From the NCBI GenBank assembly GCA_947258435.1, contig CAMYID010000012.1, positions 1 through 64,000 on the forward strand: a DNA stretch of 64,000 nt, given 5' to 3'. Below, piece after piece: positions 1 to 41,952 of this stretch. Source of the stretch: an uncultured Alphaproteobacteria bacterium. GTDB taxonomy: Bacteria; Pseudomonadota; Alphaproteobacteria; UBA11222. The stretch's first letter is position 1. Each line of letters starts with the position of its first letter. The notes under the pieces are model-generated. The model saw nothing but the letters and a program-made list of their open reading frames with translations. It did not search any database and had not been told where the DNA came from. A program made the position numbers and the translations under genes.

Positions 1-71
1 AAGGCGCGCGCTGGGTGGTCACGTCCGCGCTGGAGGTGCGCGAGCGTCCGGTGCTGGACGAGGTCGCGCTG
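1..71 (+). repeat. 71-bp direct repeat, copy 1
   Basis: Identical base for base to 534-604. It covers the end of the truncated tail gene up to its last sense codon and may extend left beyond the window. Perfect identity over third codon positions points to a recent duplication or gene conversion. Confidence 0.9.
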
Positions 72-717: not shown

Positions 718-1086
718 ATGGCGACATTGCAGGAACGGCTGGAGACGGCCACGACGCAGGTGGAGACGGATTCCGGCCTGCTGCACGACATTATCCACGG
801 TGACGTTAACACAACCGTGCAGACGGATGGCGGCCCGGTGAAGTCTGTCGCCAAGTTGTTTGGCGATCTTGAGGCTCAATACGAGGCCATAGAGTACTAC
901 ACAAACCTAGCGCAACAAGCTGCCGCAGAGGCAAATACCGCCGCTGCTATTGACCTGAACGAGGCTACGGTTTCAATCGATTTTGAGATTCCATCTGGCA
1001 GCAACGGGCTGTCTGTTGGTCCAGTGGCCGTTGCACCTGGAATTACCGTGACCATTTCGCCCGGCTCAACGTGGGCTATTATTTAG
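718..1086 (+). CDS. Phage tail fibre or fibre-adaptor protein
   Basis: A 122-aa protein whose central part (VNTTVQTDGGPVKSVAKL, about residues 30-47) resembles N-terminal attachment regions of phage tail fibres. It is followed by a helical stretch rich in Ala and Glu (residues about 50-80, possibly coiled coil) and a beta-rich C-terminus. It lies between a minor tail gene and the variable receptor-binding gene, so it may anchor that protein or trimerise the fibre. The ATG at 718 follows GGAGGG. No catalytic motif is seen. Confidence 0.6.
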   Translation: MATLQERLETATTQVETDSGLLHDIIHGDVNTTVQTDGGPVKSVAKLFGDLEAQYEAIEYYTNLAQQAAAEANTAAAIDLNEATVSIDFEIPSGSNGLSVGPVAVAPGITVTISPGSTWAII

Positions 1087-1096
1087 GAGACAGGAT

Positions 1097-2479
1097 ATGT
1101 CGAAACTGAAAGCAAACGAACTGGACTCGCAGTCCGGCGGTGACATTCTTTGCCATCAAAACATCGTGTTCGCTGATGGCAAGGGGTTTGGGAAGCAAAG
1201 CAACTGGATCGGGGTGGTCGGCGGGCAAGGTTTCGGTGTTGGTATTTGCCCAAACCTACCGAGTGGTTTTTCTGAAATTTCGGGAACAACTGACCCGACA
1301 CACGCCAACTATGGAAACTATCAATATTTAGATGGGTCTATCATGGTGTGGATTCCGGCCTTTTACTATAAAGTGGGTGTCGACAACATTATTCAGATCG
1401 CCAGCGAAGCGGCGTTCCAGGACCAAGCCGCCGCGAACGCCGAAGGATACGCCCTGCACCGCGCATTTAAGGACGCTGGCGTAGTCAAGCGCGGGTTCTT
1501 TGTTGATAAATACCAGTGCTCAAACAACGCCGGCGTGGCGTCTTCGGTTCGAAACGGTAACCCCCTCTCCACAAACGAGGCGCACAATCACATCGCCGCT
1601 CTCGATGGCACACCTACGAACAGTTACTATGGGGTTATTGATGCAGTAAAGACACGTGGCGGCATCTTCGCTTGCTGTTCGCGATTTATCTATGCCGCGC
1701 TGGCGATGTTGTCGCAAGCTCACGGCCAGGCGTCCGCAAACAGCACATTTTGCGGGTGGTACGACGCCACTTACAATTTTCCAAAGGGGTGCAATAACAA
1801 CGCGCTTGGCGACGCTAACGATGCCGCTGTTAGCTACACATCGGATGGCTATTCGAACTGCGGCAAGACGGGTTCTGGCGCGCCATTCGAGAAGACGACC
1901 CACAACGGCCAAGCCAGCGGCGTCGCCGATCTGAATGGCAACATGTGGGAGATCTCGCTTGGTCTCGTGCGCCCAGGGGCCAGCTATAATGAAGCCGTCA
2001 ATGATGCGCTTGGGACATCAAAGTTTCACGTTCTAAAGGAAACGGTCGCGCTTTCGGACATGACTCATGGTTGGAACAACGACGCAACGCATGGTGTCAG
2101 CCCCGACGACGCATGGGGGACGGACGCTTTTTTGGACACAAACTATCAAGAGCTTTCGTTGCCTCACATCGGCGCAAGTGATGGGTGGCAGTATTTTGGC
2201 AACGCAGCAAACCAAGTCCTTGATGCGGCCACATCTGGTGATGGATGGCTGAAAACGGGTCTTGGTATTTATCGTGATGGCGAAGCGTCCAGCGCGGGCG
2301 GAACAAACATGTTCGGCGTCGATGGCATATATGAGTTCCACACATCCAACCTTTGCGCACGCTCGGGCGGGGACTGGTCCAGTGGCTCGCTTGCAGGTGT
2401 CTGGACGTTGAGCATGAGCAGCTATCGGACAAGCTCGTTCTGGAACGTGGGGTTCCGGGCGGCCTGTTACCCTGTTTAG
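1097..2479 (+). CDS. Receptor-binding tail protein with C-type-lectin fold, DGR target type
   Basis: This 460-aa protein ends in an FGE-sulfatase/C-type-lectin-like domain. DLNGNMWE (about residues 279-286) matches the GN-[VM]-WE signature. The last 38 residues follow the pattern GGxW..G..AGVWTL.M..YR.S...NVGFRAA seen in variable proteins of diversity-generating retroelements. Such proteins sit at the phage tail tip and bind the host receptor. Most differing positions are codons derivable from AAY by change of A (GAC, TCC, AGC, TAT, TTC), as expected from adenine-directed mutagenesis. The start has a clear TAGGAGA upstream. The gene is followed in frame by a reverse-transcriptase remnant. Confidence 0.82.
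   Translation: MSKLKANELDSQSGGDILCHQNIVFADGKGFGKQSNWIGVVGGQGFGVGICPNLPSGFSEISGTTDPTHANYGNYQYLDGSIMVWIPAFYYKVGVDNIIQIASEAAFQDQAAANAEGYALHRAFKDAGVVKRGFFVDKYQCSNNAGVASSVRNGNPLSTNEAHNHIAALDGTPTNSYYGVIDAVKTRGGIFACCSRFIYAALAMLSQAHGQASANSTFCGWYDATYNFPKGCNNNALGDANDAAVSYTSDGYSNCGKTGSGAPFEKTTHNGQASGVADLNGNMWEISLGLVRPGASYNEAVNDALGTSKFHVLKETVALSDMTHGWNNDATHGVSPDDAWGTDAFLDTNYQELSLPHIGASDGWQYFGNAANQVLDAATSGDGWLKTGLGIYRDGEASSAGGTNMFGVDGIYEFHTSNLCARSGGDWSSGSLAGVWTLSMSSYRTSSFWNVGFRAACYPV
2363..2476 (+). other. Variable region (VR) of a diversity-generating retroelement target
   Basis: The last 38 codons of the receptor gene have fixed codons for GG, W, G, AGV, TL, NVGFRAA and mixed codons between them, the layout of a DGR variable region. 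In an active DGR an almost identical template repeat would lie next to the reverse transcriptase gene. No second copy of this segment was noticed in the window, so the region is probably no longer diversified in cis. Confidence 0.65.
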
Positions 2480-2683
2480 CGAGCGGCTATCGGCATTCAT
2501 TCCGAAGCGGCGTTGAATTTCGTTGGCTACAGAACATGGCGGCGAAAAAGGTTTGTGCGAAAGCATAGCCTTCACAAGTTTTCCCGCGCCGTCCGGTCTG
2601 GGGATAGGGAATCGGCGGTGTCTCTGCTTGGGCACGCCAAAGGAACGTCATCTTTCAACCACATGATGGACAAAGTAAAGTAA
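2480..2683 (+). pseudogene. Remnant of a DGR reverse transcriptase (C-terminal end only)
   Basis: The frame that continues after the amber stop of the receptor gene encodes 67 residues up to TAA at 2681. It contains NFVGYRTW (2516-2539), a basic stretch RRKRFVRKHSLHKF, and SLLGHAK (2621-2641). This succession matches the thumb/C-terminal end of DGR reverse transcriptases; Bordetella phage Brt has NFLGYRIW, then LRKSS, then SWSGHA in the same order. The fingers and palm with the catalytic Asp motif are absent and no start codon fits. The simplest reading is a deletion that removed the template repeat and most of the gene. Confidence 0.75.
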
Positions 2684-2695
2684 AGGAAACAAACC

Positions 2696-3145
2696 ATGAC
2701 CTCTATCTATCGCTACCAGAAAGTCACAGACGAATTCACCACGTACCGCATGGCCGAGCCTCGGGACGACAGCGGGAACAGCCTCGCCATCGAGCTTTGT
2801 ACGCTTGCGGATGGCTACACATACGTGTCAGTGGCTGATGCAGCGGTGCTCCCGGATCAACCCTCCGAAATCACGGTGGAGCCCGTTACGCTGGATAGTA
2901 TGACGCGCGAGTCGATCAAATCGTTCAGCCCGCATGTGAAGCTGATCGAAAAGCGGATGCAGGACATGATCCGGGACGTTTACTCTCTGGAGGACGAGCT
3001 TTACCTGGCGCGGATTTCGGTTGGCGTGCTGCAAGGAACATACACCCTACAGGACGGGGAGGATGTGATCCTGAATGACTATCAATCGTATGTAGAATCT
3101 GTGCGCGAGTGGGGTGGCGTCGAGCGCAGCAAGCTGGGGCTGTAG
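2696..3145 (+). CDS. Phage tail-region protein of unknown function
   Basis: A 149-aa protein with an ATG preceded by AAAGGAAA. The N-terminal half looks beta-rich and the second half helical (residues about 75-105, KLIEKRMQDMIRDVYSLEDE). It lies between the receptor gene and a DUF1833 gene, a position often taken by fibre-assembly or chaperone-like proteins. I do not recognise a family. It may act with the receptor protein, but that is inferred only from position. Confidence 0.55.
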   Translation: MTSIYRYQKVTDEFTTYRMAEPRDDSGNSLAIELCTLADGYTYVSVADAAVLPDQPSEITVEPVTLDSMTRESIKSFSPHVKLIEKRMQDMIRDVYSLEDELYLARISVGVLQGTYTLQDGEDVILNDYQSYVESVREWGGVERSKLGL

Positions 3146-7001: not shown

Positions 7002-7412
7002 ATGAACATCGAACAGATGAAGACTGAACTTGTACGTGATGAAGGGCTTCGCCTGAAGCCATACAAGGACACTGTGGGAAAGCTCACCATCGGAGTTGGC
7101 CGGAATCTCGACGACGTGGGAATCACGGAAGAAGAGGCCGGATACCTGCTGGAGAACGATATTGGCCGCGCAATGGCCGACCTGGATCGGAATGTCCCGT
7201 GGTGGAGGTCGCTGTCGGATGCCCGGCAACGCGCCATGATTAACATGTGCTTCAACCTGGGATGGCCCCGGCTTTCCCAATTCCAAAACATGCTGGCGGC
7301 CCTGGAGGCTGGTGACTACGAGCGCGCGGCGATTGAGGCGCTCGATAGCCGGTGGGCTCGACAAGTGGGCAGCCGAGCCGCCCGGGTCGCGGCGCAAATC
7401 ATGGAGGGGTGA
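7002..7412 (+). CDS. Phage endolysin, T4-type lysozyme (GH24)
   Basis: A 136-aa muramidase that hydrolyses the MurNAc-GlcNAc bond of peptidoglycan. The catalytic triad is visible as Glu14 (RDEGLRL), Asp23 (PYKDT) and Thr29 (LTIGVG), with the T4 lysozyme E-x8-D-x5-T spacing. The C-terminal ARQRAMINMCFNLG is also typical of the family. There is no N-terminal signal or anchor, so export should depend on the neighbouring holins. The start is two bases after the holin stop. Confidence 0.93.
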   Translation: MNIEQMKTELVRDEGLRLKPYKDTVGKLTIGVGRNLDDVGITEEEAGYLLENDIGRAMADLDRNVPWWRSLSDARQRAMINMCFNLGWPRLSQFQNMLAALEAGDYERAAIEALDSRWARQVGSRAARVAAQIMEG

Positions 7413-7414
7413 CC

Positions 7415-7834
7415 ATGCTTGGCGTTCTTGGGAAAATTTTTGGCGTCGGTGCGGCGGAACCTATTCAGGCTGTCGGTGGGGTCCTGGATTCGTTGTTTAC
7501 GTCCGACGAGGAACGGCTGGACAAGAAGGCGGTGCTGGAGCGTCTCGCCCAACGCCCTGGAGAGTTGCAGGCGGCCATCAATAAGGTGGAGGCACAGCAC
7601 AGGTCTGTTTTCGTCGCAGGATGGAGACCATTCATCGGCTGGGTCTGCGGCGCTGGCATCGCCTGGGCCTTCATCGGCCAGCCGCTATTCGAATGGGTGG
7701 TCGCCGTGTTCATGCCGGATAAAGGCATCGTTCCGCCGGTCATCGTCACAGATCACCTATTCGAGCTTGTCCTTGCCATGTTGGGCATGGGGACTCTTCG
7801 GACGTTCGAGAAGTTCGGGGGCAAGGCAAAATGA
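7415..7834 (+). CDS. Holin-like protein of the GTA/phage three-TM family
   Basis: The 139-aa product has a charged N-terminal half (EERLDKKAVLERLAQRPGE) and two or three hydrophobic segments containing WRPFIGWVCGAGIAWAF (about residues 70-87) and ELVLAMLGMGTLRTFEK near the end. This matches the 3TM holin family named from gene transfer agents and phages. I place the start at ATG 7415, after GGAGGGGTGACC; a longer reading from 7352 would overlap the lysozyme gene for no reason. It probably acts in lysis. Confidence 0.8.
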   Translation: MLGVLGKIFGVGAAEPIQAVGGVLDSLFTSDEERLDKKAVLERLAQRPGELQAAINKVEAQHRSVFVAGWRPFIGWVCGAGIAWAFIGQPLFEWVVAVFMPDKGIVPPVIVTDHLFELVLAMLGMGTLRTFEKFGGKAK

Positions 7835-30024: not shown

Positions 30025-30561
30025 TTGGCTTGCAGGCGGATCGACTGGCGACAGGTGCGCGCTGACTATGAGGCGGGCGGGCAGTCAATTGCCGCGATTG
30101 CGCGACGGCATGGCATTTCGCGCAGCACCTTATATCGGCAGCGACGCAGGCAGGGATGGCAGAGCGGTGTGCAGACCGTGTCGCAAAACAGGGATCCGAT
30201 GGTGCAGGCCCCAAGGGCGCCAGCGGACGGGGCGGCCCGCGCCTCGGTGCGGATGATCGCCATCGTGAGCCGGATGACAGATCAGCTCGACGCGGTGCTG
30301 GCCGAAAGTGATATGGGCGCGATGTCGGCGGCCGACAGAAAGGGCCTTTCTGATCTGGTAACGAACCTTACCCGGGCGCTCGAAAAGCTTACCGCCCTCG
30401 AACGCGCGGATGGGCTGGCCGACGCTGTAACCGGTTCCAGATCTGAAAACACCGAAGCGGAGAGCCGCGTGCATGACATCTGGGACGATCTTCAACGCCG
30501 TCTGGCTCGCCTCGCAGACGCCGGCGGAGCGGCAGTGGATTCTGCGCCAACTGCCGGTTGA
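30025..30561 (+). CDS. GTA small terminase subunit (g1-like)
   Basis: A 178-aa protein with an N-terminal helix-turn-helix (SIAAIARRHGISRSTLYRQR, residues about 21-40), as in small terminases and resolvase-type HTHs, and a C-terminal helical oligomerisation region (DRKGLSDLVTNLTRALEKL). With the large subunit it would recognise and feed DNA into proheads; in GTAs this is with little sequence preference. The only suitable start is TTG at 30025, about 20 bases after an out-of-frame ATG, so translation may be weak. It overlaps the large subunit gene by 89 bases. Confidence 0.78.
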   Translation: MACRRIDWRQVRADYEAGGQSIAAIARRHGISRSTLYRQRRRQGWQSGVQTVSQNRDPMVQAPRAPADGAARASVRMIAIVSRMTDQLDAVLAESDMGAMSAADRKGLSDLVTNLTRALEKLTALERADGLADAVTGSRSENTEAESRVHDIWDDLQRRLARLADAGGAAVDSAPTAG

Positions 30562-31813
30562 TACGGTTACCGCCTTGCCCTGGTTGTGGCGTTTCTGGGC
30601 CCGGCCCGATCAGTTGCCGCCATCTGGCGAATGGACAAGCTGGATCATGCTGGGCGGGCGCGGTGCCGGCAAAACACGCGCCGGTGCGGAATGGGTGCGT
30701 GCCTCGGTCGAAGGGCGGACACCCCTGTCGGGCGGGCAACGTGGCCGGCTGGCCCTTATCGGTGAAACGCTGGCCGCGGTGCGCGATGTGATGGTGGAAG
30801 GCGAGAGCGGTATTCTGGCGATTTCCCCTGATTGGGCCCGCCCGAAATTCGAACCGTCAAAGAGGCGTTTAAGCTGGGGTAATGGTGCGGTAGCGCAGAT
30901 CTTTTCTGCGGACGATCCCGATTCCCTGCGTGGGCCGCAATTTGACGGCGCCTGGGCCGATGAGCTTGCCAAATGGCGCTATGGCCGGGAAAGCTGGGAC
31001 ATGCTGCAGTTCGGATTGCGGCTTGGGGCCGATCCCCGGCAGGTTGTCACGACAACGCCGCGCCCTGTGCGGCTGCTTCGCGAGCTGATGGCGGATCCGA
31101 ACAATGTGGTGACACGGGTATCGACCTATGCCAACCGGCCCCATCTCGCGCCGCAGTTTTTTCGCCGGATCATTGCGCAATATGAAGGCACGCGCCTGGG
31201 CCGGCAGGAGCTGATGGCCGAAATTCTGAGCGATAATCCCGAGGCGCTGTGGCGGCATGAGGATATCGATATGGCGCGTATTGTACGGCCGCCGCGATTG
31301 CGGCAGGTGGTCGTGGCGGTTGATCCGCCCGCCAGCGCACACAGACAAAGCGATGCCTGCGGTATCATCGTCGCCGGGATCGGTGAGGATGATGCGGGCT
31401 ATGTACTGGCCGATCACACGGTGCAGGGCGTTTCGCCGCGCGGATGGGCGGCGCAGGCGGTCGCCGCCTTTTACCGGCATGATGCCGCGCGTTTGCTTGT
31501 CGAGGTTAATCAGGGGGGTGACATGGCGGAAGCCGTGATCCGGCAGGTCGATGACCGGATTGCCATCCGGCAGGTGCGGGCAAGCCGGGGCAAGGGTGCG
31601 CGTGCCGAGCCTGTATCGGCGCTTTACGAGCAGGGGCGGGTGCATCATGTCGGCACATTGCCTGAACTGGAAACCGAGATGACCGAATTCACGGCCGGTT
31701 TCGACCGTCGCCGCGCTGGCTGGAGTCCGGACCGGGTCGACGCGCTGGTCTGGGCACTGACCGAGCTGATGCTGCAGGGCGAGGCGGGAAAGCCGCGTCT
31801 GCGGCGGCTCTGA
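30473..31813 (+). CDS. GTA large terminase (packaging ATPase/nuclease, g2)
   Basis: A 446-aa motor protein. Walker A is GGRGAGKT (residues 61-68), followed by RAGAEWVRA; the region around FDGAWADELAKW (about 160) is the Walker B/catalytic Glu site, and VVAVDPPASAHRQSDACGI (about 277) starts the RNase H-like nuclease with its first Asp; DRVDALVWALTEL near the end holds the last acidic residue. It packages host DNA into the GTA head and cuts it at headful. The start lies inside the g1 gene, needed to include the conserved LPWLWRFWARPDQLPP region. Confidence 0.93.
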   Translation: MTSGTIFNAVWLASQTPAERQWILRQLPVDTVTALPWLWRFWARPDQLPPSGEWTSWIMLGGRGAGKTRAGAEWVRASVEGRTPLSGGQRGRLALIGETLAAVRDVMVEGESGILAISPDWARPKFEPSKRRLSWGNGAVAQIFSADDPDSLRGPQFDGAWADELAKWRYGRESWDMLQFGLRLGADPRQVVTTTPRPVRLLRELMADPNNVVTRVSTYANRPHLAPQFFRRIIAQYEGTRLGRQELMAEILSDNPEALWRHEDIDMARIVRPPRLRQVVVAVDPPASAHRQSDACGIIVAGIGEDDAGYVLADHTVQGVSPRGWAAQAVAAFYRHDAARLLVEVNQGGDMAEAVIRQVDDRIAIRQVRASRGKGARAEPVSALYEQGRVHHVGTLPELETEMTEFTAGFDRRRAGWSPDRVDALVWALTELMLQGEAGKPRLRRL

Positions 31814-31836
31814 TCCATAAACCGGGAGGGAACTGG

Positions 31837-33057
31837 GTGAAAACCAATAGCTCATTATTGCGCCGTCGGCCAAAACGCGGCGCGCCGGCACGCAAGGACA
31901 GTGCGACCGGTCCCATGATCGCGCTGCACCGGCAGGGTGTGCCTGTCTGGACGCCGCGAAACTATGCGGAACTTGCGCGCGAGGGGTTTGCGCGCAATGC
32001 GGTGGCCTATCGCTGCGTGCGACTGATTGCCGAAAGCGCGGCGGCGCTGCCATGGCTGCTCTACGAGCGCGAAGGCGGACGTGAGCGGGAGCGTGATGAT
32101 CATCCGATGCTCAGCCTGCTTGCAAATCCCAACCCCTTGCAGTGCGGGCCTGAATTAATGGAAGCCTGGTACGGTTTTCTGATGATCTCGGGTAACGCTT
32201 ACCTGGAAGCGGTGGATATTGCGGCCCAGCCGCGCGAGCTCTATGCCTTGCGGCCCGACCGCATGTCTTTGATCCCTGGACCGCGTGGCTGGCCTGTCGC
32301 CTATGAGTATAGGGCGGGCGGCGGGAAAGTGCGCTTCGATATGGACCGTGCCGCCGGGCGTGAACCGATTCTGCATCTGAGACTGTTTCATCCGCTCAAC
32401 GATTATTATGGTTTTTCGCCGATCGAGGCAGCGGCTGGGGGGATCGATATCCATAATGCGGCTGGCAGCTGGAACAAGGCGCTGCTGGATAACGGGGCAC
32501 GACCATCGGGCGCGCTTGTCTATCATGGGACGGAAGGACAGAGTAATCTCAGTGAGGAACAGTTTGCGCGCCTGAAATCCGAGCTTGGCGACAATTATCA
32601 GGGTGCGGCCAATGCAGGCCGGCCGCTCTTGCTTGAGGGTGGACTTGACTGGAAGGAAATGTCCTTCAATCCGAAAGATATGGATTTCATTCAGTCAAAG
32701 AACATTGCCGCGCGGGAGATTGCGGCGGCTTTTGGCGTGCCACCGATGCTGCTTGGCATTACCGGTGACAATACCTATGCGAATTATCAGGAGGCGAACC
32801 GCGCTTTCTACCGGCAGACGGTGCTGCCGCTTGTGGGGAAAGCGGCGCGTGCGCTCAGCGTATGGCTGGGTCCGCGTTTCGGCGGCAATCTGCGGCTCTG
32901 GTACGATGCCGATCAGGTGGAGGCATTGTCCTATGATCGCGAATTGCTCTGGAAACGGGTGCAGAGCGCTGACTTCCTGTCGGTAAATGAAAAACGCGCG
33001 GCGCTTGGTTATGCGCCCGTCGAAGGCGGTGACGCGATCGCCGCGACAAATGGTTGA
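31837..33057 (+). CDS. GTA portal protein (g3)
   Basis: A 406-aa HK97-type portal protein. The core contains VAYRCVRLIAESAAALPWLLY (about residues 50-70, quoted in part as VRLIAESAAALPW), HPMLSLLANPN, and further on IAAAFGVPPMLLGITGDNTYANYQEANRAFY (in part GVPPMLLGITGD), all typical of the family. Twelve copies form the ring through which DNA enters and leaves the head. The start is GTG after GGGAGGGAACTGG. The stop overlaps the next ATG. Confidence 0.93.
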   Translation: MKTNSSLLRRRPKRGAPARKDSATGPMIALHRQGVPVWTPRNYAELAREGFARNAVAYRCVRLIAESAAALPWLLYEREGGRERERDDHPMLSLLANPNPLQCGPELMEAWYGFLMISGNAYLEAVDIAAQPRELYALRPDRMSLIPGPRGWPVAYEYRAGGGKVRFDMDRAAGREPILHLRLFHPLNDYYGFSPIEAAAGGIDIHNAAGSWNKALLDNGARPSGALVYHGTEGQSNLSEEQFARLKSELGDNYQGAANAGRPLLLEGGLDWKEMSFNPKDMDFIQSKNIAAREIAAAFGVPPMLLGITGDNTYANYQEANRAFYRQTVLPLVGKAARALSVWLGPRFGGNLRLWYDADQVEALSYDRELLWKRVQSADFLSVNEKRAALGYAPVEGGDAIAATNG

Positions 33058-33332
33058 TGCCGATGAGTATATCTGAAGACAAGAACCATAATGTCTGGCG
33101 GATCGACCGGCGGGTGCCGGCGATGATGTTTGTGATGTTGGCCCTGCAGATCGGTGCGGCGCTTGTGTGGGCGGGCGCGGTTGGACAGCGGATCGACCGT
33201 CTGGAAGCGGCAACCGACGACCAGGCCGTACTTGTCGAGCGGACGGTGCGGCTTGAGGAGCAGTTGCGCCATGCGCTGGGGCTGCTTGACCGGATAGAGG
33301 GGAAAATCGATAAAATCGACAGCCGTTCCTGA
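33057..33332 (+). CDS. Small membrane protein of the GTA cluster (g3.5-like)
   Basis: A 91-aa protein with one membrane segment (AMMFVMLALQIGAALVWAGA, about residues 20-39) followed by a coiled-coil-forming tail with repeated Arg/Glu (ERTVRLEEQLRHALGLLDRI). It begins within the portal stop (TGATG), so translation is coupled. Its counterpart in RcGTA is the small ORF g3.5 of unknown role. It is the last GTA gene before the acyl-CoA dehydrogenase insertion. Confidence 0.75.
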   Translation: MPMSISEDKNHNVWRIDRRVPAMMFVMLALQIGAALVWAGAVGQRIDRLEAATDDQAVLVERTVRLEEQLRHALGLLDRIEGKIDKIDSRS

Positions 33333-33388
33333 CGGTTTTCAAGGGGGTTCAGGGATGCCCGGTCGCATGCTAGATTGCGCGCAAATTC

Positions 33389-33406
33389 GCCGCCTTTGCG
33401 GCCTTT
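33389..33406 (+). terminator. Short hairpin with T-run after g3.5
   Basis: GCCGC (33389-33393), loop CTTT, GCGGC (33398-33402), then CTTTTG. A weak intrinsic terminator at the left boundary of the acyl-CoA dehydrogenase insertion. Confidence 0.5.
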
Positions 33407-33424
33407 TGTTGCGGAGCATAGCTA

Positions 33425-34624
33425 ATGGACTTATCGCTGACGCCTGAGATTAAGGCGTTTCAAATGGAAGTGCGGGAATTTATCCGCGAAAACCTGCCCG
33501 AAGAAATTATCGAGCATAATCCGGTGGGCTTTTCCTCTAACAAGGAAAATATCCGCCGTTGGCACAGGATTCTGCATGACAAAGGCTGGGTTTCGCCAAG
33601 CTGGCCGGTCGAATATGGCGGCACCGGGTGGAGCGCCACGCAAAAGTTCATTTTTGATGAGGAACTGAGCACTTGCGGTGCACCGCGGCTCTTGCCCTTC
33701 GGCTTGTCGATGGTGGGGCCTGTCATCTACAGCTTTGGCAGCGAAGCGCAGAAGCAGCAGCATCTGCCTGGTATCCGCTCGGGCGATACCTGGTGGTGCC
33801 AGGGTTATTCCGAACCTGGCGCGGGGTCCGATCTTGCCAATCTTAAAACGACGGCGGTTCGCGATGGCGATCATTATATCGTCAATGGCCAGAAAATCTG
33901 GACGAGCTACGCGCATCAGGCGGACTGGATTTTCTGCCTTGTACGGACAGACCCGGATGTGAAACCGCAGCAAGGGATTTCCTTTCTGCTGATCGATATG
34001 AAAACGCCTGGCGTTGAGGTAAAGCCCATTGTGTCAATCGACGGCTTGCACCATCTGAATGAGACTTTTTTCTCCGATGTGCGGGTGCCGGTCGAAAACC
34101 GGATCGGTGAGGAAAACAAGGGCTGGACTTACGCAAAATTCCTGTTGATGCATGAGCGGACAAGCATTGCAGGGGTCGCCGCCTCGCGCCAGAATTTGCA
34201 GCGTATTCGTCAGATTGCAAAACAGCCTGTGCCGGGCGCCGATACAGCCCTCATCGAGGACCCTGATTTCGCGCGAAAGCTTGCGGAAATCGATATCAAG
34301 TTGACCGCACTCGAATATACCAATCTGCGCAGCCTGTCCGATCAGGAAGCGGGGCGCGCGATGGGTGCTGAAACCTCGATGCTGAAGATTGTAGGAACCG
34401 AAGTGCAGCAGGCGCTGCAGGAACTTGCGGTTGAGCTTGCGGGTATTTATGCGGCGCCCTATGTGCCGCAGGCATTTGAGGGTAGCTGGAATGAGCCGCC
34501 GATCGGCCCTGATTGGGCCATGGCCGCAACCGGGCAATATGCCTTTGGTCGGGCGGCAACGATTTATGGCGGTTCGAATGAAATTCAGCGTGGCGTCATT
34601 GCCAAGGCGGTGCTTGGCCTTTGA
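33425..34624 (+). CDS. Acyl-CoA dehydrogenase inserted in the GTA cluster
   Basis: A full-length 399-aa acyl-CoA dehydrogenase of the large-subunit type. CQGYSEPGAGSDLANL (about residues 124-139) and YIVNGQKIWTSYAHQADW follow the family pattern, and IYGGSNEIQRGVIAKAVLG closes the protein. It has no role in a phage particle. It interrupts the GTA cluster between the g3.5 and protease genes, with a weak hairpin before it and a good terminator after it (34699-34735), so it looks like an independent metabolic cassette. It resembles the enzyme at 9516 in type, but is shorter and clearly diverged. Likely substrate: a branched or ring-derived acyl-CoA. Confidence 0.93.
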   Translation: MDLSLTPEIKAFQMEVREFIRENLPEEIIEHNPVGFSSNKENIRRWHRILHDKGWVSPSWPVEYGGTGWSATQKFIFDEELSTCGAPRLLPFGLSMVGPVIYSFGSEAQKQQHLPGIRSGDTWWCQGYSEPGAGSDLANLKTTAVRDGDHYIVNGQKIWTSYAHQADWIFCLVRTDPDVKPQQGISFLLIDMKTPGVEVKPIVSIDGLHHLNETFFSDVRVPVENRIGEENKGWTYAKFLLMHERTSIAGVAASRQNLQRIRQIAKQPVPGADTALIEDPDFARKLAEIDIKLTALEYTNLRSLSDQEAGRAMGAETSMLKIVGTEVQQALQELAVELAGIYAAPYVPQAFEGSWNEPPIGPDWAMAATGQYAFGRAATIYGGSNEIQRGVIAKAVLGL

Positions 34625-34698
34625 CATCATGGTGAACTGAAAAGGGTGTCTTCCCTGCCCGGCTTGCGGGTGTAGCGCAGGCCGGGATCGCAAACTTG

Positions 34699-34735
34699 AA
34701 AGGCGGTGTTCCGAAAGGAGTGCCGCCTTTTCTTT
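34699..34735 (+). terminator. Terminator after the inserted acyl-CoA dehydrogenase
   Basis: AAAGGCGG (34699-34706) pairs with CCGCCTTT (34723-34730), followed by TCTTTT. If efficient, it would stop transcripts coming from the GTA promoter before the protease and capsid genes, unless antitermination or a second promoter exists. Confidence 0.78.
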
Positions 34736-34772
34736 TCCGCCCTCTCAGGGGCCCAGGTTTCATGGAGCCAAA

Positions 34773-35474
34773 ATGCCAAGCGACATTTATTCAGCGCAAT
34801 CGGGGCGGCCTGCTCATCCTGTCACAGTCGCCCCCGAGGTGAAATTCACCCGTCTTGCGGTGGACCGTATTGCACAGGATGGCTCGTTTGAGGGTTATGC
34901 CAGTGTTTTCGGCATTACCGATCAGGGCGGCGATATCGTCGCGCCCGGAGCATTCCGTAATTCGCTCAGAAAACGGTCTGCCGGTCAAATCCGTATGTTG
35001 TGGCAGCACGATCCGTCTGAACCGATCGGGGTGTGGGACAGGATTGCCGAGGATGCGCACGGGCTGCGCGTTCAGGGGCGGCTGCTGCCCGATATCGCGC
35101 GTGCCCGGGAATTGCTTTCCCTGATGCGCGCCGGTGCGGTCGATGGACTGTCGATCGGCTTTAGAACGATCCGCGCAAGCCAGCAGACAGGAAAAGCTGC
35201 GCGCATGCTGATCGAAGTGGATTTGTGGGAAATCTCAATCGTGACATTTCCCATGAATGAAAGCGCGCGGATTGCGGCGGTCAAACAGATCGGGACGTTG
35301 CGTGAATTCGAAGCCTTTCTGCGGGAGGCAGGGGGGCTGACCCGGGCGGAAGCGAAACGCGTCGCTGCCCGGGGTTATGCGGGGATCGCGGAACAGCGGG
35401 ATGCTGGGCCTGAACTTGCGCAGTTTGTGCAAAGGATCCAGCGCGCAAAACAGCTATTACAACTGAAAGGATGA
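34773..35474 (+). CDS. GTA prohead protease (g4, HK97 family)
   Basis: A 233-aa serine protease of the HK97/U35 type. The core runs from FEGYASVFGITDQGGDIVAPGAF (in part GYASVFGITDQGGD) through MLWQHDPSEPIG (His near residue 78), DGLSIGFRT (nucleophile Ser near 129) and WEISIVTFPMN. It trims the capsid protein and itself during head maturation. A C-terminal helical tail (residues 185-233) is longer than the catalytic core needs. It starts about 149 bases after the inserted gene, beyond the terminator. Confidence 0.92.
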   Translation: MPSDIYSAQSGRPAHPVTVAPEVKFTRLAVDRIAQDGSFEGYASVFGITDQGGDIVAPGAFRNSLRKRSAGQIRMLWQHDPSEPIGVWDRIAEDAHGLRVQGRLLPDIARARELLSLMRAGAVDGLSIGFRTIRASQQTGKAARMLIEVDLWEISIVTFPMNESARIAAVKQIGTLREFEAFLREAGGLTRAEAKRVAARGYAGIAEQRDAGPELAQFVQRIQRAKQLLQLKG

Positions 35475-35478
35475 TCAG

Positions 35479-36762
35479 GTGACGAATGACATTGATGGCG
35501 CGACAAGTGCGCCTGAAAACAAAAGTCTGAGCCGGCCGGCAATTGGCGAGGTGCAGGCGGCATTCTCTGAATTCATGGAAAGCTTTGAGGAGTTCAAAAC
35601 GGCAAATGACCTCCGGCTGGCAGAGCTTGAAAGCCGCACCGGCAGCGATGTGCTGACTGAGGAAAAGGTCAGGCGCATCAACCATGCCCTTGATACGCAA
35701 AAAAGGGCCCTCGATGAGTTGACGCTTGCGCGCGGTCGCCCGGCGCTGGCCGGACAGGAAGACAGGGCCGGCCATCTCTCGCCGGTCGCCTGTGAACATA
35801 AGGCCGGTTTTGAAGGTTATATGCGTGCCGGCACCGATCAGGGATTGCGCGCGCTCGAGGCCAAGGCCCTGTCCGCCGGTTCCAATCCGGATGGCGGTTA
35901 TCTGGTGCCCGAGGAAACCGAAACCGCGATTGACGGGCTATTGCGCAAGGCTTCGCCTGTTCGTGCGCTCGCCACGGTGCGCAAGATCAGCGGCAACAGC
36001 TACAAGAAGCCCTTTGCGACAAGCGGTACCGCCACGGGCTGGGTTGGGGAAACAGGCGCGCGGACGCAGACCGATACGCCGACGCTGGCCGAGCTCGATT
36101 TTCCGGCAATGGAGCTTTATGCCATGCCGTCCGCCACGCAGACTTTGCTTGATGATGCGGCAGTCGATACAGAAGCCTGGCTTGCCGAAGAAGTGCAGGC
36201 CGCCTTTGCCGAACAGGAGAGCACAGCTTTTGTAACCGGCGACGGGGTGAACAAACCCAAAGGTTTTCTCGACTATACGACGGTGGCTAATGCCAGCTGG
36301 AGCTGGGGCAATGTCGGCTATGTCGCGTCAGGCGCGGCAGGCGCGTTTGCGGCATCCGATCCCGGTGACACGCTGATCGATCTGATTTACAGCTTGCGGC
36401 AGGCCTACCGCGCCAACGCGCATTGGGTGCTCAATCGGAATGTTCAGGCCGAAATACGCAAGTTCAAGGATGCGGATGGCAATTATCTCTGGCAGCCGGG
36501 AGTGCAAGCCGGGCAGCCCGCATCATTGCTCGGTTATCCTGTGAGTGAATCCGAGGATATGCCCGATATTGCCGCCGACAGCCTGAGTATTGCGTTCGCC
36601 GACTTTCGGCATGGCTACCTCATTGTCGACAGGCTTGGTGTGCGGGTGTTGCGTGATCCGTATACTGCAAAACCATATGTGCTGTTCTACACCACCAAGC
36701 GGGTTGGCGGTGGCATTCAGAATTTCGAGGCGATCAAGCTTATGAAATTCGCCACTAGCTGA
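35479..36762 (+). CDS. GTA major capsid protein (g5, HK97 fold)
   Basis: A 427-aa HK97-type capsid protein. The first 115 or so residues are helical and charged (scaffolding/delta domain, to be removed by the protease), with a mature start near LRALEAKALSAGSNPDGGYLVP. Conserved parts include GWVGETGARTQTDTP, ELYAMPSATQTLLDDAAVD and EQESTAFVTGDGVNKPKGFL (in part FVTGDGVNKPKGF). It would form the small GTA head. Start GTG or an equivalent codon just after the protease stop with AAAGGATGATCAGG upstream. Confidence 0.95.
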   Translation: MTNDIDGATSAPENKSLSRPAIGEVQAAFSEFMESFEEFKTANDLRLAELESRTGSDVLTEEKVRRINHALDTQKRALDELTLARGRPALAGQEDRAGHLSPVACEHKAGFEGYMRAGTDQGLRALEAKALSAGSNPDGGYLVPEETETAIDGLLRKASPVRALATVRKISGNSYKKPFATSGTATGWVGETGARTQTDTPTLAELDFPAMELYAMPSATQTLLDDAAVDTEAWLAEEVQAAFAEQESTAFVTGDGVNKPKGFLDYTTVANASWSWGNVGYVASGAAGAFAASDPGDTLIDLIYSLRQAYRANAHWVLNRNVQAEIRKFKDADGNYLWQPGVQAGQPASLLGYPVSESEDMPDIAADSLSIAFADFRHGYLIVDRLGVRVLRDPYTAKPYVLFYTTKRVGGGIQNFEAIKLMKFATS

Positions 36763-36768
36763 GTTCCC

Positions 36769-36812
36769 GGCAGGCTGCGCGGGAACCAAGTTGGTTTCTT
36801 GTGCGGCCTGCC
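36769..36812 (+). promoter_or_regulatory. Long hairpin between the capsid and g6 genes
   Basis: GGCAGGC (36769-36775) pairs with GCCTGCC (36806-36812) and inner AACCA/TGGTT pairs extend it; an alternative GTTCCCG/CGGGAAC stem overlaps. It is followed by CTCTTT. Placed after the capsid gene, it could protect the upstream mRNA or partly stop transcription, keeping capsid higher than connector proteins. Confidence 0.5.
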
Positions 36813-36862
36813 CTCTTTCAATTGCCTTTGGTTCAATCCGAAAGCCTGCGGGGTTCATTCAC

Positions 36863-37459
36863 ATGCCAATTGACTACAGCCTGAAGCTGCTGTCGCCACC
36901 GGTTGTCGAGCCGGTCACCGAAGCCGAGGTCATGGCGCATTTGCGCCTTGAAACAAGCGGGGAAAGTGCATTGCTGGACAGGTTGACGGCAGCGGCGCGC
37001 CGGCAGGTGGAAAGCTGGACCGGGCGTGCGCTGATGACGCAAAGCTGGCGCTGGTCACTTGATCGGTGGCCCGGTGGCCGCAATTGTATCCTTACACTTC
37101 CCAGGCCGCCAATGCAGTCGCTCGATCAGATTCTCCTGTTCGATGCGCAGGGACAGTCGGCTGTGTGGGATACGCAGAATTACGATGTGGATGCGGGAGA
37201 TGATCCGGCCCGGCTTCTCCTGCGCGTTGGCTGCCTGCCGCCGCAGCCCGGGCGTCAGATCGCCGGCATCGCGATCGATTTTACCTGCGGTTACGGCGTG
37301 GCGGGATCCGATGTTCCGGCACCGATCCGCCAGGCGATCCTGATGCTGACGGCCCATTACTATGAAAATCGCGAGCTCGCGGCCCCGGCTGACAGGACAA
37401 TGACTTTGCCGCAGGGCCCCGCTGCGCTGCTTGCACCCTATAAGGCTGTGAGGCTTTAG
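36863..37459 (+). CDS. GTA head-tail adaptor (g6)
   Basis: A 198-aa connector of the gp6/DUF-type found in GTAs. VVEPVTEAEVMAHLRLE (about residues 12-28) and RRQVESWTGRALMTQSW are the family's conserved helices, followed by beta strands and IRQAILMLTAHYYENRE. It binds under the portal. I place the start at ATG 36863 (MPIDYSLKLL); an earlier in-frame start at 36791 would run through the hairpin after the capsid gene. Confidence 0.88.
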   Translation: MPIDYSLKLLSPPVVEPVTEAEVMAHLRLETSGESALLDRLTAAARRQVESWTGRALMTQSWRWSLDRWPGGRNCILTLPRPPMQSLDQILLFDAQGQSAVWDTQNYDVDAGDDPARLLLRVGCLPPQPGRQIAGIAIDFTCGYGVAGSDVPAPIRQAILMLTAHYYENRELAAPADRTMTLPQGPAALLAPYKAVRL

Positions 37460-37461
37460 CC

Positions 37462-37782
37462 ATGATCGGTGATTTGCGGCATCGCATCACGCTGCAACAG
37501 GCGGTGGATACCCCGGATGCGGCCGGTGGCAACGCGCGAAGCTGGCAGGATATTGCGACGCTTTGGGCCGAAATCGAGCCATTGTCCGGTGGTGAGAAGG
37601 TTCAGGCGATGGCTGTTACGGCGACGCAGAAATACCGTCTGCGGCTGCGCTATCGCGCCGATATCACAACTGCGCAACGGTTCGTTCGCGACGGGCAGGT
37701 CCTCAATATTCATGCCGTCCGCGATCGGGATGAACGTCAGCGCTGGCTTGAATGTCTGTGCGAGTCTGAAACCGCCGGATGA
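37462..37782 (+). CDS. GTA head closure / stopper protein (g7)
   Basis: A 106-aa protein of the phage head-closure family: MIGDLRHRITLQQ at the start, WQDIATLWAEIEPLSGGE in the middle, and FVRDGQVLNIHAVRDRDER towards the end are the family's hallmarks. It sits between the adaptor and the tail terminator and closes the connector after packaging. It starts two bases after the g6 stop. Confidence 0.9.
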   Translation: MIGDLRHRITLQQAVDTPDAAGGNARSWQDIATLWAEIEPLSGGEKVQAMAVTATQKYRLRLRYRADITTAQRFVRDGQVLNIHAVRDRDERQRWLECLCESETAG

Positions 37783-37859
37783 AGCTGCGGGGGCCGGTTC
37801 CGATGATCCGCGTCCCGCTATCTCAACGACTGAAAATCAATCAAGGGGGGGGACAGCCC

Positions 37860-38246
37860 ATGACAGCGGCCGGATGGGAGCTGCAACAGGCGATCTATGC
37901 GCAGCTCGACAGCAATTCAAGTTATGCCGTCTACGACCATGTGCCGCCGCAGGCACCCTTTCCCTTTATCGTTGTGGGGGATGCGACGGCCAATGAGTGG
38001 GGCGCGGGCGAGCTTGATGGCGAAGAGCATGCGCTCAGCATACATATCTGGTCGCGCTATCAGGGTCGGATGCAGATGAAGCAGATGATGGGCGAGGTGA
38101 AGGCCGCGCTCGCACTGCCACTGCCGCCACTTACCGGGCATGTGCTCGTTGATCTCAGATTCGTCTTTGCCGATGAATTTCCCGACCCGGACGGGATTTC
38201 CCGCCATGGGGTCGTCCGGTTTCGCGCGCTTACCCATCCAGCGTAG
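37860..38246 (+). CDS. GTA tail terminator (g8, DUF3168)
   Basis: A 128-aa DUF3168 protein: LQQAIYAQLDSNSSYAVYDH, APFPFIVVGD and HALSIHIWSRYQGRMQMKQM are typical. It caps the tail tube and joins it to the head. I start at ATG 37860, preceded by GGGGGGG, which gives the family's usual length; a start at 37779 overlapping the g7 stop would add 27 untypical residues but cannot be excluded. Confidence 0.85.
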   Translation: MTAAGWELQQAIYAQLDSNSSYAVYDHVPPQAPFPFIVVGDATANEWGAGELDGEEHALSIHIWSRYQGRMQMKQMMGEVKAALALPLPPLTGHVLVDLRFVFADEFPDPDGISRHGVVRFRALTHPA

Positions 38247-38279
38247 GCGCGGTTTCAATCTACTTTCAAGGAGGCGCAT

Positions 38280-38693
38280 ATGGCGGCGCAAAAAGGAAGG
38301 GACCTGCTGCTCAAAGTGGACAGCACGGGAGCGGGAGCGTTCAGCACGGTCGCGGGTTTGCGTGCCCGGAGCCTGAACCTGAACGCGCGGCCCGTTGATA
38401 TTACCAATGCGGATTCTGCCAATGGCTGGCGGGAAATGCTGGCCGGTGCCGGAGTGAAAAGCGCGGCGATAAGCGGTTCGGGCGTGTTTCTCGATGCCGC
38501 AGCCGATGAAACCGCGCGCAGCTACTTCTTTAATGGCACGATCCGCGAATGGCAGATCATTTTGCCCGATTTTGGAACAATCGAAGGTCTGTTTCAGATT
38601 ACCGGGCTTGAGTTCAACGCCGACCATGACGGTGAAGTAAGCTACAGCCTGTCGCTTGAGAGCGCCGGTGAACTCAGCTTTGTGGCGGCTTGA
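38280..38693 (+). CDS. GTA major tail tube protein (g9)
   Basis: A 137-aa tail tube protein of the TP901-1/GTA type. GRDLLLKVDSTGAGAFSTVA at the start, RARSLNLNARPVDITNADS and WREMLAGAGVKSAAISGSG in the middle, and LEFNADHDGEVSYSLSLESA near the end match GTA g9 proteins. Hexamer rings stack to form the tail tube. The start follows AAGGAGGCGCAT, one of the best ribosome sites in the cluster, as expected for an abundant protein. Confidence 0.92.
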   Translation: MAAQKGRDLLLKVDSTGAGAFSTVAGLRARSLNLNARPVDITNADSANGWREMLAGAGVKSAAISGSGVFLDAAADETARSYFFNGTIREWQIILPDFGTIEGLFQITGLEFNADHDGEVSYSLSLESAGELSFVAA

Positions 38694-38695
38694 CT

Positions 38696-39076
38696 ATGGC
38701 AAACCGGCATCGCGGTGAAATCACTGCTTATTTCGACGATCAACCTTACATTCTCTGCCTCACGCTCGGCGCGCTTGCCGATCTGGAGGAGCAGCTCGGG
38801 GAAGAGGATATCCTGTCGCTTGCCAGGCGTTTCGAAAGCGGGCGGATCAGCGCGCGCGAGGCCCGAGCGGTTATTGCCGCGGGGCTGCGGGGGGCCGGGC
38901 ATACGCTTTCGGATTCTGAAATCGACAGATTGACTGCGGGTCAGGGTGTGCCCGGCTGGCTGGGGATCGTGATCGAACTGTTGCAGGCAGCTTTTGGTGT
39001 CACGACAACTGACGAACAGGCCGGGGCGCTGCCGGGGGAGGGGGCGCCTTTGTCCCCTTTCCCTGGCGGCGGGTAA
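38696..39076 (+). CDS. GTA tail assembly protein (g10)
   Basis: A 126-aa protein of the GTA-gp10 family: NRHRGEITAYFDDQPYILCL, GALADLEEQLGEEDILSLARR (in part) and ISAREARAVIAAGLRGAG are recognisable. Together with the next small gene it takes the place of phage tail assembly chaperones. It starts two bases after the g9 stop region and overlaps the next start by one base. The C-terminus is rich in Gly and Pro. Confidence 0.88.
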   Translation: MANRHRGEITAYFDDQPYILCLTLGALADLEEQLGEEDILSLARRFESGRISAREARAVIAAGLRGAGHTLSDSEIDRLTAGQGVPGWLGIVIELLQAAFGVTTTDEQAGALPGEGAPLSPFPGGG

Positions 39077-39315
39077 TGCAGGCAGGGCTTGGCCTGCTGC
39101 GTCTGACACCCGCCGCTTTCTGGACGATGACCCCTGTTGAGCTTCAAACCGCACTGGATGGGCTTTCCGGTGTAGCGCATCGGGGCAGGGCCGCGTCCGT
39201 GACCCGCGCCGATCTTGCGCGGCTGAATGCGCGGTTCCCCGATAAGGCTCCGCCCCCAATACTGGTGCCGGATTTGCCCAATAACCGAGAGAATGAACAT
39301 GGAAGATCGCGGTAA
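39076..39315 (+). CDS. GTA tail assembly chaperone (g10.1)
   Basis: A 79-aa protein: GLLRLTPAAFWTMTPVELQT, then SVTRADLARLNARFPDK. This matches the short GTA/phage chaperone family (TIGR02216-like) found between g10 and the tape measure gene. It starts at the last base of g10 and its end overlaps the tape measure start by 17 bases. It should help tape-measure folding or tail assembly. Confidence 0.85.
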   Translation: MQAGLGLLRLTPAAFWTMTPVELQTALDGLSGVAHRGRAASVTRADLARLNARFPDKAPPPILVPDLPNNRENEHGRSR

Positions 39316-39964
39316 CACAATGACTGCGCGGGAGAACGTGCAGCTGGATCTGGATTCAGACCGGCTCAAACGTAATCTGACGGAGCTGCGCGTGCGGACC
39401 CGCGAATTTCGTGAGGATCTGCGGGAGGTTTCGCGCGCGGGGCGTGAAACCGGGCAAACGCTCAGCCGCGCCTTTGGTGATGCGATTCTGCGCGGCAGGA
39501 ATTTATCCGATGTTGTTAAGGGGCTTGCCCTTCGGTTGAGCGAGCAGGCACTGAACCGGGCGCTCGATCCGGTGGGGGACGCGCTTGGCAATGCACTCAC
39601 AACGGGGCTTGAAGGGCTGTTCGCGCGCGGCTTTTCCTCGGTTCAGGCAAATGCAAGGGGTAACGCCTTCGCGCATGGCAAGATCGTGCCGCTAGCGCGC
39701 GGCGGGGTCGTTGACGGACCCACCTTTTTCCCGATGCGTGGCGGGGAAACCGGGCTGATGGGAGAAGCAGGGCCAGAGGCGATTATGCCCCTGACCAGAG
39801 GCGCCGACGGTAAGCTTGGTGTGCGCACCCGGGGCGGAGGACAGAATGCTGTCACGATCAATTTCAATGTCACGACACCGGATGCCGCAAGCTTCCAGCG
39901 TTCGGAATCGCAGATTGCAGCCATGCTCAACCGGGTTGCCGAACGCGGTGCACGCAATCAGTAG
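39299..39964 (+). CDS. GTA tape measure protein (g11)
   Basis: A 221-aa tape measure protein, short as in other RcGTA-like elements, consistent with a short tail. The N-terminal half is helical (VQLDLDSDRLKRNLTELR, then REFREDLREVSRAGRETGQ), the central segment ALNRALDPVGDALGNALTTG is hydrophobic, and GEAGPEAIMPLTRGADGKLG in the C-terminal half is a hallmark of phage and GTA tape measures. I start at ATG 39299; a longer reading from 39227 lies entirely within g10.1. Confidence 0.88.
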   Translation: MEDRGNTMTARENVQLDLDSDRLKRNLTELRVRTREFREDLREVSRAGRETGQTLSRAFGDAILRGRNLSDVVKGLALRLSEQALNRALDPVGDALGNALTTGLEGLFARGFSSVQANARGNAFAHGKIVPLARGGVVDGPTFFPMRGGETGLMGEAGPEAIMPLTRGADGKLGVRTRGGGQNAVTINFNVTTPDAASFQRSESQIAAMLNRVAERGARNQ

Positions 39965-39975
39965 GGGACGGAATG

Positions 39976-40608
39976 ATGGCCTTTCATGAAGTGCGGTTCC
40001 CCACCGGAATCAGTATTGGATCGCGTGGCGGGCCTGAACGGCGGACAGAGATCGTGACGCTTGGCAGCGGTCATGAGGAACGCAACAGCTCGTGGGCGGA
40101 TTCACGTCGGCTTTTCAATGCGGGTTATGGCGTCCGCTCGCTCGACGATATTTATCTCATCATCGCATTTTTCGAAGCACGCCGTGGCCGGTTGCATGGC
40201 TTTCGGTTTCGCGATTTCAGCGATTGGAAGTCGGGATCGCCAGGCGGTCTGATTACGCCGATGGATCAGCCGCTGGGGACAGGTGATGGTGCGACCACGC
40301 AATTCCAGCTCTCAAAAACCTATGCCAGCGGTTCGCAAAGTTACCTACGTCCGATCAGCAAAGCTGTTGCCGGCACGGTGCGGATTGCAGCCGATGCATT
40401 CGAGTTGACGACAGGAACAGATTTCGGCGTCGATAGCAGTACAGGGCTTGTGACATTCACCGCCCCGCCTGCCAGCGGTGCGGTGCTGACCGCCGGTTTT
40501 GAGTTTGATGTTCCGGTCCGGTTCGATCAGGACCGGCTGGAAATCGACCTGGCAAGTTTCAATGCCGGGCAAATCCCCGACATCCCGCTGAGGGAGATCA
40601 GAATATGA
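39976..40608 (+). CDS. GTA distal tail protein (g12, DUF2460)
   Basis: A 210-aa DUF2460 protein. AFHEVRFPTGISIGSRGGPE, GHEERNSSWADSRRLFNAGY (in part) and FFEARRGRLHGFRFRDFSDW are the family's conserved N-terminal pieces; FDVPVRFDQDRLEIDL closes the protein. It forms the ring connecting the tail tube to the baseplate hub. ATG at 39973 or 39976 is possible after GGGGACGGA. It overlaps g13 by four bases. Confidence 0.92.
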   Translation: MAFHEVRFPTGISIGSRGGPERRTEIVTLGSGHEERNSSWADSRRLFNAGYGVRSLDDIYLIIAFFEARRGRLHGFRFRDFSDWKSGSPGGLITPMDQPLGTGDGATTQFQLSKTYASGSQSYLRPISKAVAGTVRIAADAFELTTGTDFGVDSSTGLVTFTAPPASGAVLTAGFEFDVPVRFDQDRLEIDLASFNAGQIPDIPLREIRI

Positions 40609-41501
40609 AGCAAATCAATGCCGCATTTGCCGCGCATCTGAGTAGCGGTGTCACCACAATCTGTCATTGCTGGAAATTGACACGACGTGACGGGGTAAGC
40701 CGCGGCTTTACCGATCATGACCGGGATCTGAGCTTTGACGGGGTGAGTTATATGGCTGTCAGTGGTTTCACCGCGGGTATGATCGAAACCTCGCTGGGGC
40801 TTAGTGTCGATAATCTTGAAGCTGTGGGGGCGTTGAGCGATTTGAGCATCAGCGAAGCGGATCTTGCGGCGGGCCTTTACGATGATGCGGAAGTCCTGAT
40901 TTACCGCGTCAACTGGCAGGATACAGATCAGCGCGTGGTCATGCGCGCGGGCAATTTGGGTGAGGTGACGCGTGGTCCATCGGCTTTCCGTGCCGAATTG
41001 CGCGGGCTTGCCCATCGTCTCAACCAGCCGCAGGGACGGTTGTTTCAGTATAGCTGTGACGCCGATCTCGGAACACCGCGCTGTGGCGTTGATCTTGCGG
41101 GCACAGATTTTGTCGGGACAGACATTGTTGCCGCCCCGATCACCCCCGATATCCGTCGCCGCTTTTCTGCTCAGTCGCTTGACGGCTTTGCCAATGGCTG
41201 GTTCAGCCGCGGCCGGCTGTCATGGCAGTCCGGCGTCAATACCGGGCTGTCGATGGAGGTAAAACTGCATACAAATTCCGCCGGTATTGTCAGCTTCGAA
41301 TTGTGGCGCGACATGCCAGCCGATATCGCCGCCGGTGACAGCTTTACGGTGAGCGCGGGTTGCGACAAGCAGTTCAGCACCTGCAGCGCCAAATTTGCAA
41401 ATGCCGTCAATTTTCGCGGTTTTCACCTGATGCCGGGAAATGACTGGGTGCAGTCATACCCCTCCCAGGGCGAAGGTAATGACGGGGGAAGCCTGCGATG
41501 A
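40605..41501 (+). CDS. GTA baseplate hub protein (g13, DUF2163)
   Basis: A 298-aa DUF2163 protein. WKLTRRDGVSRGFTDHDRDL (about residues 23-42) and the C-terminal FHLMPGNDWVQSYPSQ are family signatures. Four Cys in YSCDADLGTPRCGVDL and CDKQFSTCSAKF match the positions that hold an iron-sulfur cluster in the GTA hub structure, as far as I recall. It forms the trimeric hub at the tail tip. It overlaps both neighbours by four bases. Confidence 0.92.
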   Translation: MKQINAAFAAHLSSGVTTICHCWKLTRRDGVSRGFTDHDRDLSFDGVSYMAVSGFTAGMIETSLGLSVDNLEAVGALSDLSISEADLAAGLYDDAEVLIYRVNWQDTDQRVVMRAGNLGEVTRGPSAFRAELRGLAHRLNQPQGRLFQYSCDADLGTPRCGVDLAGTDFVGTDIVAAPITPDIRRRFSAQSLDGFANGWFSRGRLSWQSGVNTGLSMEVKLHTNSAGIVSFELWRDMPADIAAGDSFTVSAGCDKQFSTCSAKFANAVNFRGFHLMPGNDWVQSYPSQGEGNDGGSLR

Positions 41502-41935: not shown

Positions 41936-41952
41936 TTCAGGGCATCTGCATT

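What the first reader, a model, noticed from the sequence alone, without database searches (positions are those of the whole stretch)
2363..2683. Decayed diversity-generating retroelement in the prophage tail
The receptor gene ends in a DGR-type C-type-lectin variable segment and is followed directly by the last 67 codons of a DGR reverse transcriptase (NFVGYRTW at 2516-2539, SLLGHAK at 2621-2641). The polymerase core, accessory gene and template repeat are not visible. This suggests a phage that once varied its receptor binding and has fixed one variant, or one whose variable region is served in trans by a DGR elsewhere.
Basis: partly seen in the sequence, partly recalled or inferred. Interest (0 to 1): 0.82.

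Follow-up and report, generated by a model that had tools for sequence, protein, structure and literature searches.

The report
Dead receptor-diversifying retroelement in a prophage
A prophage tail-tip gene still carries the hypervariable end made by a mutation-generating retroelement, but the machinery was deleted down to a 56-codon stub of its reverse transcriptase, so the receptor is now frozen; the same loss happened many times independently in related phages.

Summary
Window 2513-2680 is the last part of a DGR reverse transcriptase (58.8% identical, E 9e-13, to a phage RT; about 50-67% to 80 IMG/VR loci, starting at NFVGYRTW). The preceding gene (1097-2479) is a CLec-type DGR variable protein. 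In relatives the order is receptor(VR)-avd-TR-RT-149-aa gene, with receptor stop to NFVGYRTW mostly 1431-1517 bp; here it is 34 bp. So about 1.4 kb (nearly all avd, all TR, most of RT including YxDD) was deleted. Two more lesions: the expected avd ATG reads ATC, and a 5-bp tandem duplication throws the RT C-terminus out of frame. No other RT or TR was found in the host assembly, so service in trans is unlikely. The VR bears the A-site imprint of past mutagenesis and is now fixed. Beyond the window: among 153 non-redundant relatives 31 lack a working DGR at this spot, needing at least 26 state changes on a tree. One near-identical pair shows a 1602-bp in-frame excision across a 6-bp microhomology, the same architecture as here. 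Most avd-RT scars are in frame, suggestively linked to the RT gene overlapping the next gene. Verdict: an ordinary dead DGR, notable for its recurrence.

The parts
718..1086 (+). small protein upstream of the receptor gene; its C-terminal part is conserved upstream of the receptor in many relatives
1097..2479 (+). tail receptor gene, CLec-type DGR variable protein
   Evidence: profile match to PDB 5vf4 E 2.3e-6 over profile positions 265-456; PHROG tail families; 35-63% identity to DGR targets
2372..2446 (+). variable region codons (sites that are AAY in relatives' template repeats)
   Evidence: A at 10 of 25 hot sites versus match at 37 of 44 cold sites
2489..2518 (+). avd N-terminal remnant (I)GIHSEAALN, expected start ATG reads ATC
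   Evidence: relatives start MGIHSEA.LNRKF
2513..2518 (.). deletion junction avd|RT, microhomology TGAA(T)
2513..2683 (+). C-terminal remnant of DGR reverse transcriptase, 56 codons plus stop
2672..2686 (+). tandem repeat AAAGT AAAGT AAAGG; 5-bp duplication causing frameshift and premature stop
2674..2733 (+). out-of-frame continuation of RT C-terminus (KVKETNHDLYLSLPESHRR) overlapping the next gene
   Evidence: (HMM 311-335 in frame 2)
2696..3145 (+). 149-aa protein of unknown function, the gene that follows the RT in relatives

Best explanation
The locus is the scar of a phage DGR. Formerly: receptor with VR, avd, TR, RT, then the 149-aa gene. A deletion of about 1.4 kb, probably by slippage across TGAA(T), joined avd codon ~9 to the RT thumb/C-terminal segment, removing TR and all catalytic motifs. 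The avd start and RT 3' end then or earlier also broke. Mutagenic homing is impossible; the receptor keeps the last VR written, as an ordinary fixed host-recognition domain. The RT stub probably persists because the loss was recent and because the RT 3' end overlaps and carries the ribosome-binding region of the next gene. Shown: homology, deletion, lesions, absence of TR/RT, recurrence. Inferred: past mutagenesis of this VR, current receptor function, reason for stub retention.
For: RT tail homology; architecture and spacing in relatives; relatives are true DGRs: RT matches Bordetella DGR RT 8ub7 E 3.4e-53, Avd passes NF033474 cut-off, 2457 of 2588 VR/TR mismatches at TR adenines; near-identical receptor backbones with 6-23 of 130 VR differences in most intact pairs; no TR, no RVT_1 in genome; lesions; clean before/after pair L275/L268 with 1602-bp excision at GCCGGC; tree: 31 of 153 disrupted, 26 changes, 20 forced by supported branches.
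Against: The window is the start of a contig and the upstream part of the prophage is not assembled, so a distant TR/RT cannot be wholly excluded. No close (>65%) relative with an intact DGR was found, so deletion endpoints are inferred from distant kin. The RT stub keeps all 15 highly conserved columns and a coding-like codon pattern, which fits recent loss but could also mean retained function.
Confidence: 0.93

Rival explanations
1. The VR is still diversified in trans by a DGR elsewhere in the prophage or host.
For: The upstream half of the prophage is missing from the assembly. L196/L197 (96% identical over 2 kb, VRs differ) have no RT in their held contigs, so remote service might exist in the family.
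Against: No RVT_1 hit and no TR-like sequence in the 2.88 Mb, 95% complete genome. In relatives the TR lies 404-654 bp behind the receptor and the RT behind it.
Confidence: 0.04
2. The stub is a small functional gene, an avd-RT fusion peptide, kept by selection.
For: Open frame; all 15 conserved RT columns kept; other lineages keep in-frame avd-RT fusions, one of 321 aa with YVDD (L072/L183).
Against: No usable start codon except TTG 2513; frameshift by 5-bp duplication truncates the C-terminus; scars in other lineages have different junctions and lengths, some with internal stops (L031).
Confidence: 0.04
3. Assembly chimera: the deletion is an artefact of joining reads from variable phage populations.
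For: Assembly of 24 contigs; variable regions trouble assemblers; the contig start repeats internal sequence.
Against: Only 4-6 bp shared at the junction, far below any assembly overlap; two extra lesions beside it; the same architecture occurs in unrelated assemblies.
Confidence: 0.03

Closest known systems
Bordetella phage BPP-1 DGR (mtd-avd-TR-brt)
   Same: Order receptor-avd-TR-RT (from established knowledge); RT of intact relatives matches Bordetella RT 8ub7 at E 3.4e-53; adenine-specific VR/TR differences
   Different: In the window avd, TR and RT core are gone; only the RT C-terminal 56 codons remain; receptor resembles TaqVP rather than Mtd
Thermus aquaticus variable protein TaqVP (PDB 5vf4, PMC6328139)
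   Same: CLec-fold variable protein family, C-terminal VR (profile E 2.3e-6)
   Different: Here a tail gene of a prophage; no working DGR beside it
Degraded cyanobacterial DGRs (all3226; Anabaena sp. 90; PMC7517822)
   Same: Leftover DGR parts; [quoted passage not shown]
   Different: There single host-genome cases; here a phage receptor cassette with an RT stub, and at least 20 supported state changes in the family

Membership tests
Diversity-generating retroelement (active) | reverse transcriptase with catalytic core (YxDD) | tested here: not met
   RT HMM covers only 258-324 of 339 in the window; no RVT_1 in genome
Diversity-generating retroelement (active) | template repeat near-identical to VR | tested here: not met
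   best score 12 in window against 65-107 in intact loci; none in genome
Diversity-generating retroelement (active) | accessory gene avd | tested here: not met
   only ~9 codons without ATG
DGR remnant | RT-derived sequence at the syntenic place | tested here: met
DGR remnant | VR with variation at template-adenine sites | tested here: met
   indirectly, against relatives' TRs; own TR is lost
CLec-type DGR variable protein | CLec fold with VR at C-terminus | tested here: met
   by sequence profile only: match to 5vf4 including the VR end; no structure predicted here
VR served in trans | RT and TR elsewhere in same genome | tested here: not met
   caveat 95% completeness and missing prophage half

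The most novel reading that the evidence does not exclude
Phages of this receptor family repeatedly shed their DGR by short-homology deletions that stay in frame from avd start to RT end, because the RT gene is translationally coupled to the next tail gene; the loss locks in a successful receptor. Evidence: at least 20 supported changes; 10 of 12 avd-RT scars in frame (P 5e-4 against 1/3; only 5 of 7, P 0.045, where both sides are recognised by HMM); RT overlaps the next gene in 112 of 112 intact loci.
Probability: 0.4. Interest if true: 0.68.

Novelty: new member of a known kind. Interest (0 to 1): 0.48.

Why it matters
DGRs are usually counted only when intact. This family shows they are also lost often, leaving recognisable scars, so it can be used to ask when hypermutation of a receptor stops paying, and whether a fixed variant narrows host range. 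It also gives a marker (RT 3' stub between a VR-bearing receptor and the next gene) for finding dead DGRs that ordinary RT searches miss.

Tried and rejected
General HMM libraries could not identify the stub: too short. Genus and order searches had only 2 and 6 genomes and found no relative. A scan with the 149-aa protein gave nothing new. The first classification script mistook translated TRs for receptor ends and was replaced; crashed. Post-VR GCGATAGCG motif as a hallmark: rejected, it is present in only 100 of 157 intact loci by my pattern, so its absence in the window proves nothing. Shared ancestral loss with L011/L012 (nearest kin, also dead): each keeps pieces the others lack, so one common inactivation followed by erosion cannot be told from separate losses. 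Paper searches for surveys of DGR loss found none. No structure prediction was run; it would not change the verdict.

Full report
CHECK. The window is the first 64 kb of contig C12 of a 2.88 Mb, 24-contig, 95% complete genome. The frame 2480-2683 follows the receptor gene's TAG without a frame change. tblastn of its 67 residues against phage records gives Pseudomonas phage Bise RT at 58.8% identity, E 9e-13, over residues 12-62, and weakly Bordetella Brt over 12-60. In IMG/VR 275 matched stretches encode relatives, identities of the listed ones about 51-67%, and the match starts at residue 11-12 in most. So the RT part is 2513-2680, 56 codons.

ARCHITECTURE IN RELATIVES. Mapping the window's proteins on the loci shows a conserved cassette: receptor with C-terminal VR, avd, TR, RT, then a homologue of the 149-aa gene at 2696-3145. 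Distance from receptor stop to NFVGYRTW is mostly 1431-1517 bp in loci with a TR; in the window it is 34 bp. TR was found in about 107 loci, scores 65-107, nearly all mismatches at TR adenines; loci with RT stubs and the window score 12 or less. In the enlarged set 2457 of 2588 VR/TR mismatches fall on TR adenines, which make up 4389 of 18174 positions. RT of L014 matches the solved Bordetella DGR RT at E 3.4e-53; its Avd passes the NCBIfam cut-off for DGR Avd and matches Pfam bAvd. These relatives are true DGRs, and active ones: most pairs with 0 differences in 800 bp of receptor backbone differ at 6-23 of 130 VR positions.

THE SCAR IN THE WINDOW. 2489-2518 reads ATC GGC ATT CAT TCC GAA GCG GCG TTG AAT, i.e. 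(M->I)GIHSEAALN, the start of avd as in L039 (MGIHSEAKLNRKF), and runs in frame into LNFVGYRTW of the RT; avd ..TGAA(C/T).. and RT ..TGAA(T/C).. share 4-6 bases there. There is no ATG/GTG/TTG in this frame between the receptor stop and TTG 2513. Near the 3' end AAAGT AAAGT AAAGG (2672-2686) contains a 5-bp duplication: the RT HMM positions 311-335 continue in another frame, KVKETNHDLYLSLPESHRR, overlapping the next gene. In 112 of 112 intact loci the RT frame overlaps that gene, median 68 bp; in the window it stops 12 bases short. The stub keeps all 15 columns that are at least 85% conserved in intact RTs and its codon-position pattern equals that of intact pairs (0.54 against 0.55), so the loss was recent relative to divergence from known kin.

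NO TRANS SUPPLY SEEN. No RVT_1 anywhere in the genome, no VR-like second copy. The only portal and terminase hits of the two families searched belong to a gene-transfer-agent-like cluster at 30-46 kb of this window, so the head part of this prophage is unassembled, lost, or of a family not searched; a TR there cannot be fully excluded.

THE VR. At 25 positions where relatives' TRs have A, the window has A at 10; at 44 first/second codon positions that are not A sites it equals the TR consensus at 37. This is the expected imprint of former adenine mutagenesis, though phylogenetic divergence adds to it.

RECURRENCE. With HMMs for receptor, avd, RT and the next gene, 200 distinct sequences were sorted: 157 with RT and TR, 13 with RT stubs, 4 with avd only, 16 empty, the rest cut or unclear. 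After 90% redundancy removal 122 intact and 31 disrupted; a receptor tree without the VR needs 26 changes of state, 20 forced by well-supported branches (in the first set 14 and 9). Remnants show that at least the stub-bearing cases are losses; empty loci could also come by recombination. None of the disrupted virus contigs searched has another RVT_1 hit beyond the stubs; many contigs are fragments. The best case: L275 (intact) and L268 (stub) differ at 3 of 800 receptor backbone bases; L268 lacks exactly 1602 bp (534 codons) between two copies of GCCGGC, joining avd to RT in frame. The window has the same architecture.

FRAME. Scars keeping avd start and RT end are in frame in L072/L183, L055, L280, L039, L266 (both sides by HMM) and, with one side read by eye or by frame relation to the next gene, window, L031, L025, L268, L246; out of frame in L239 and L011; L200 has lost the avd start and is out of frame. 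10 of 12, P 5e-4; the strict HMM set (with L239 and L200 as out of frame) is 5 of 7, P 0.045. This was noticed after the fact, and in-phase microhomology between GC-rich coding sequences is a rival cause. A plausible reason is translational coupling to the overlapping next gene; untested.

KNOWN WORK. Degraded DGRs and removal of components after fixing a variant were proposed for cyanobacteria (PMC7517822); DGR activity and inactivity were surveyed for intact cassettes (PMC8144416); a crAss-like phage tail gene conserved with and without DGR is mentioned in PMC8867640. I found no survey of scars in a phage receptor cassette in the papers held; most subscription papers are not held.

VERDICT. 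The locus itself is ordinary decay; the repeated loss in the family is the more interesting result.

Noticed in passing
window 30473-45924: Gene-transfer-agent-like cluster (terminase, portal, DUF2460, phiJL001 Gp84-like, NlpC/P60, GTA_TIM protein); an acyl-CoA dehydrogenase gene (33425-34624) follows the portal gene inside it.
   Followed up: partly
window 1-71 and about 534-604: The contig begins with a copy of an internal stretch of the tail gene 191-706, so the contig end lies in a repeat or a duplicated gene.
   Followed up: no
L072 7532-8494, L183 6532-7494: In-frame fusion of Avd (HMM 2-128) to RT (151-334, with YVDD), 321 codons, without TR: either a scar or a novel fusion protein.
   Followed up: partly
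L196 / L197 around the receptor stop: 96% identical over 2 kb but with different VRs and no RT in the held contigs; a possible case of remote service or of separately fixed variants.
   Followed up: partly
L030 7672-8320, L045 7233-7900, L300 after the receptor stop: DGR replaced by about 0.65-0.7 kb of unrelated DNA between receptor and next gene; nature of the insert not determined.
   Followed up: no
window 7352-7834: GTA_holin_3TM family protein at the lysis end of the CLec prophage, after a LydA-type holin and a phage lysozyme.
   Followed up: no
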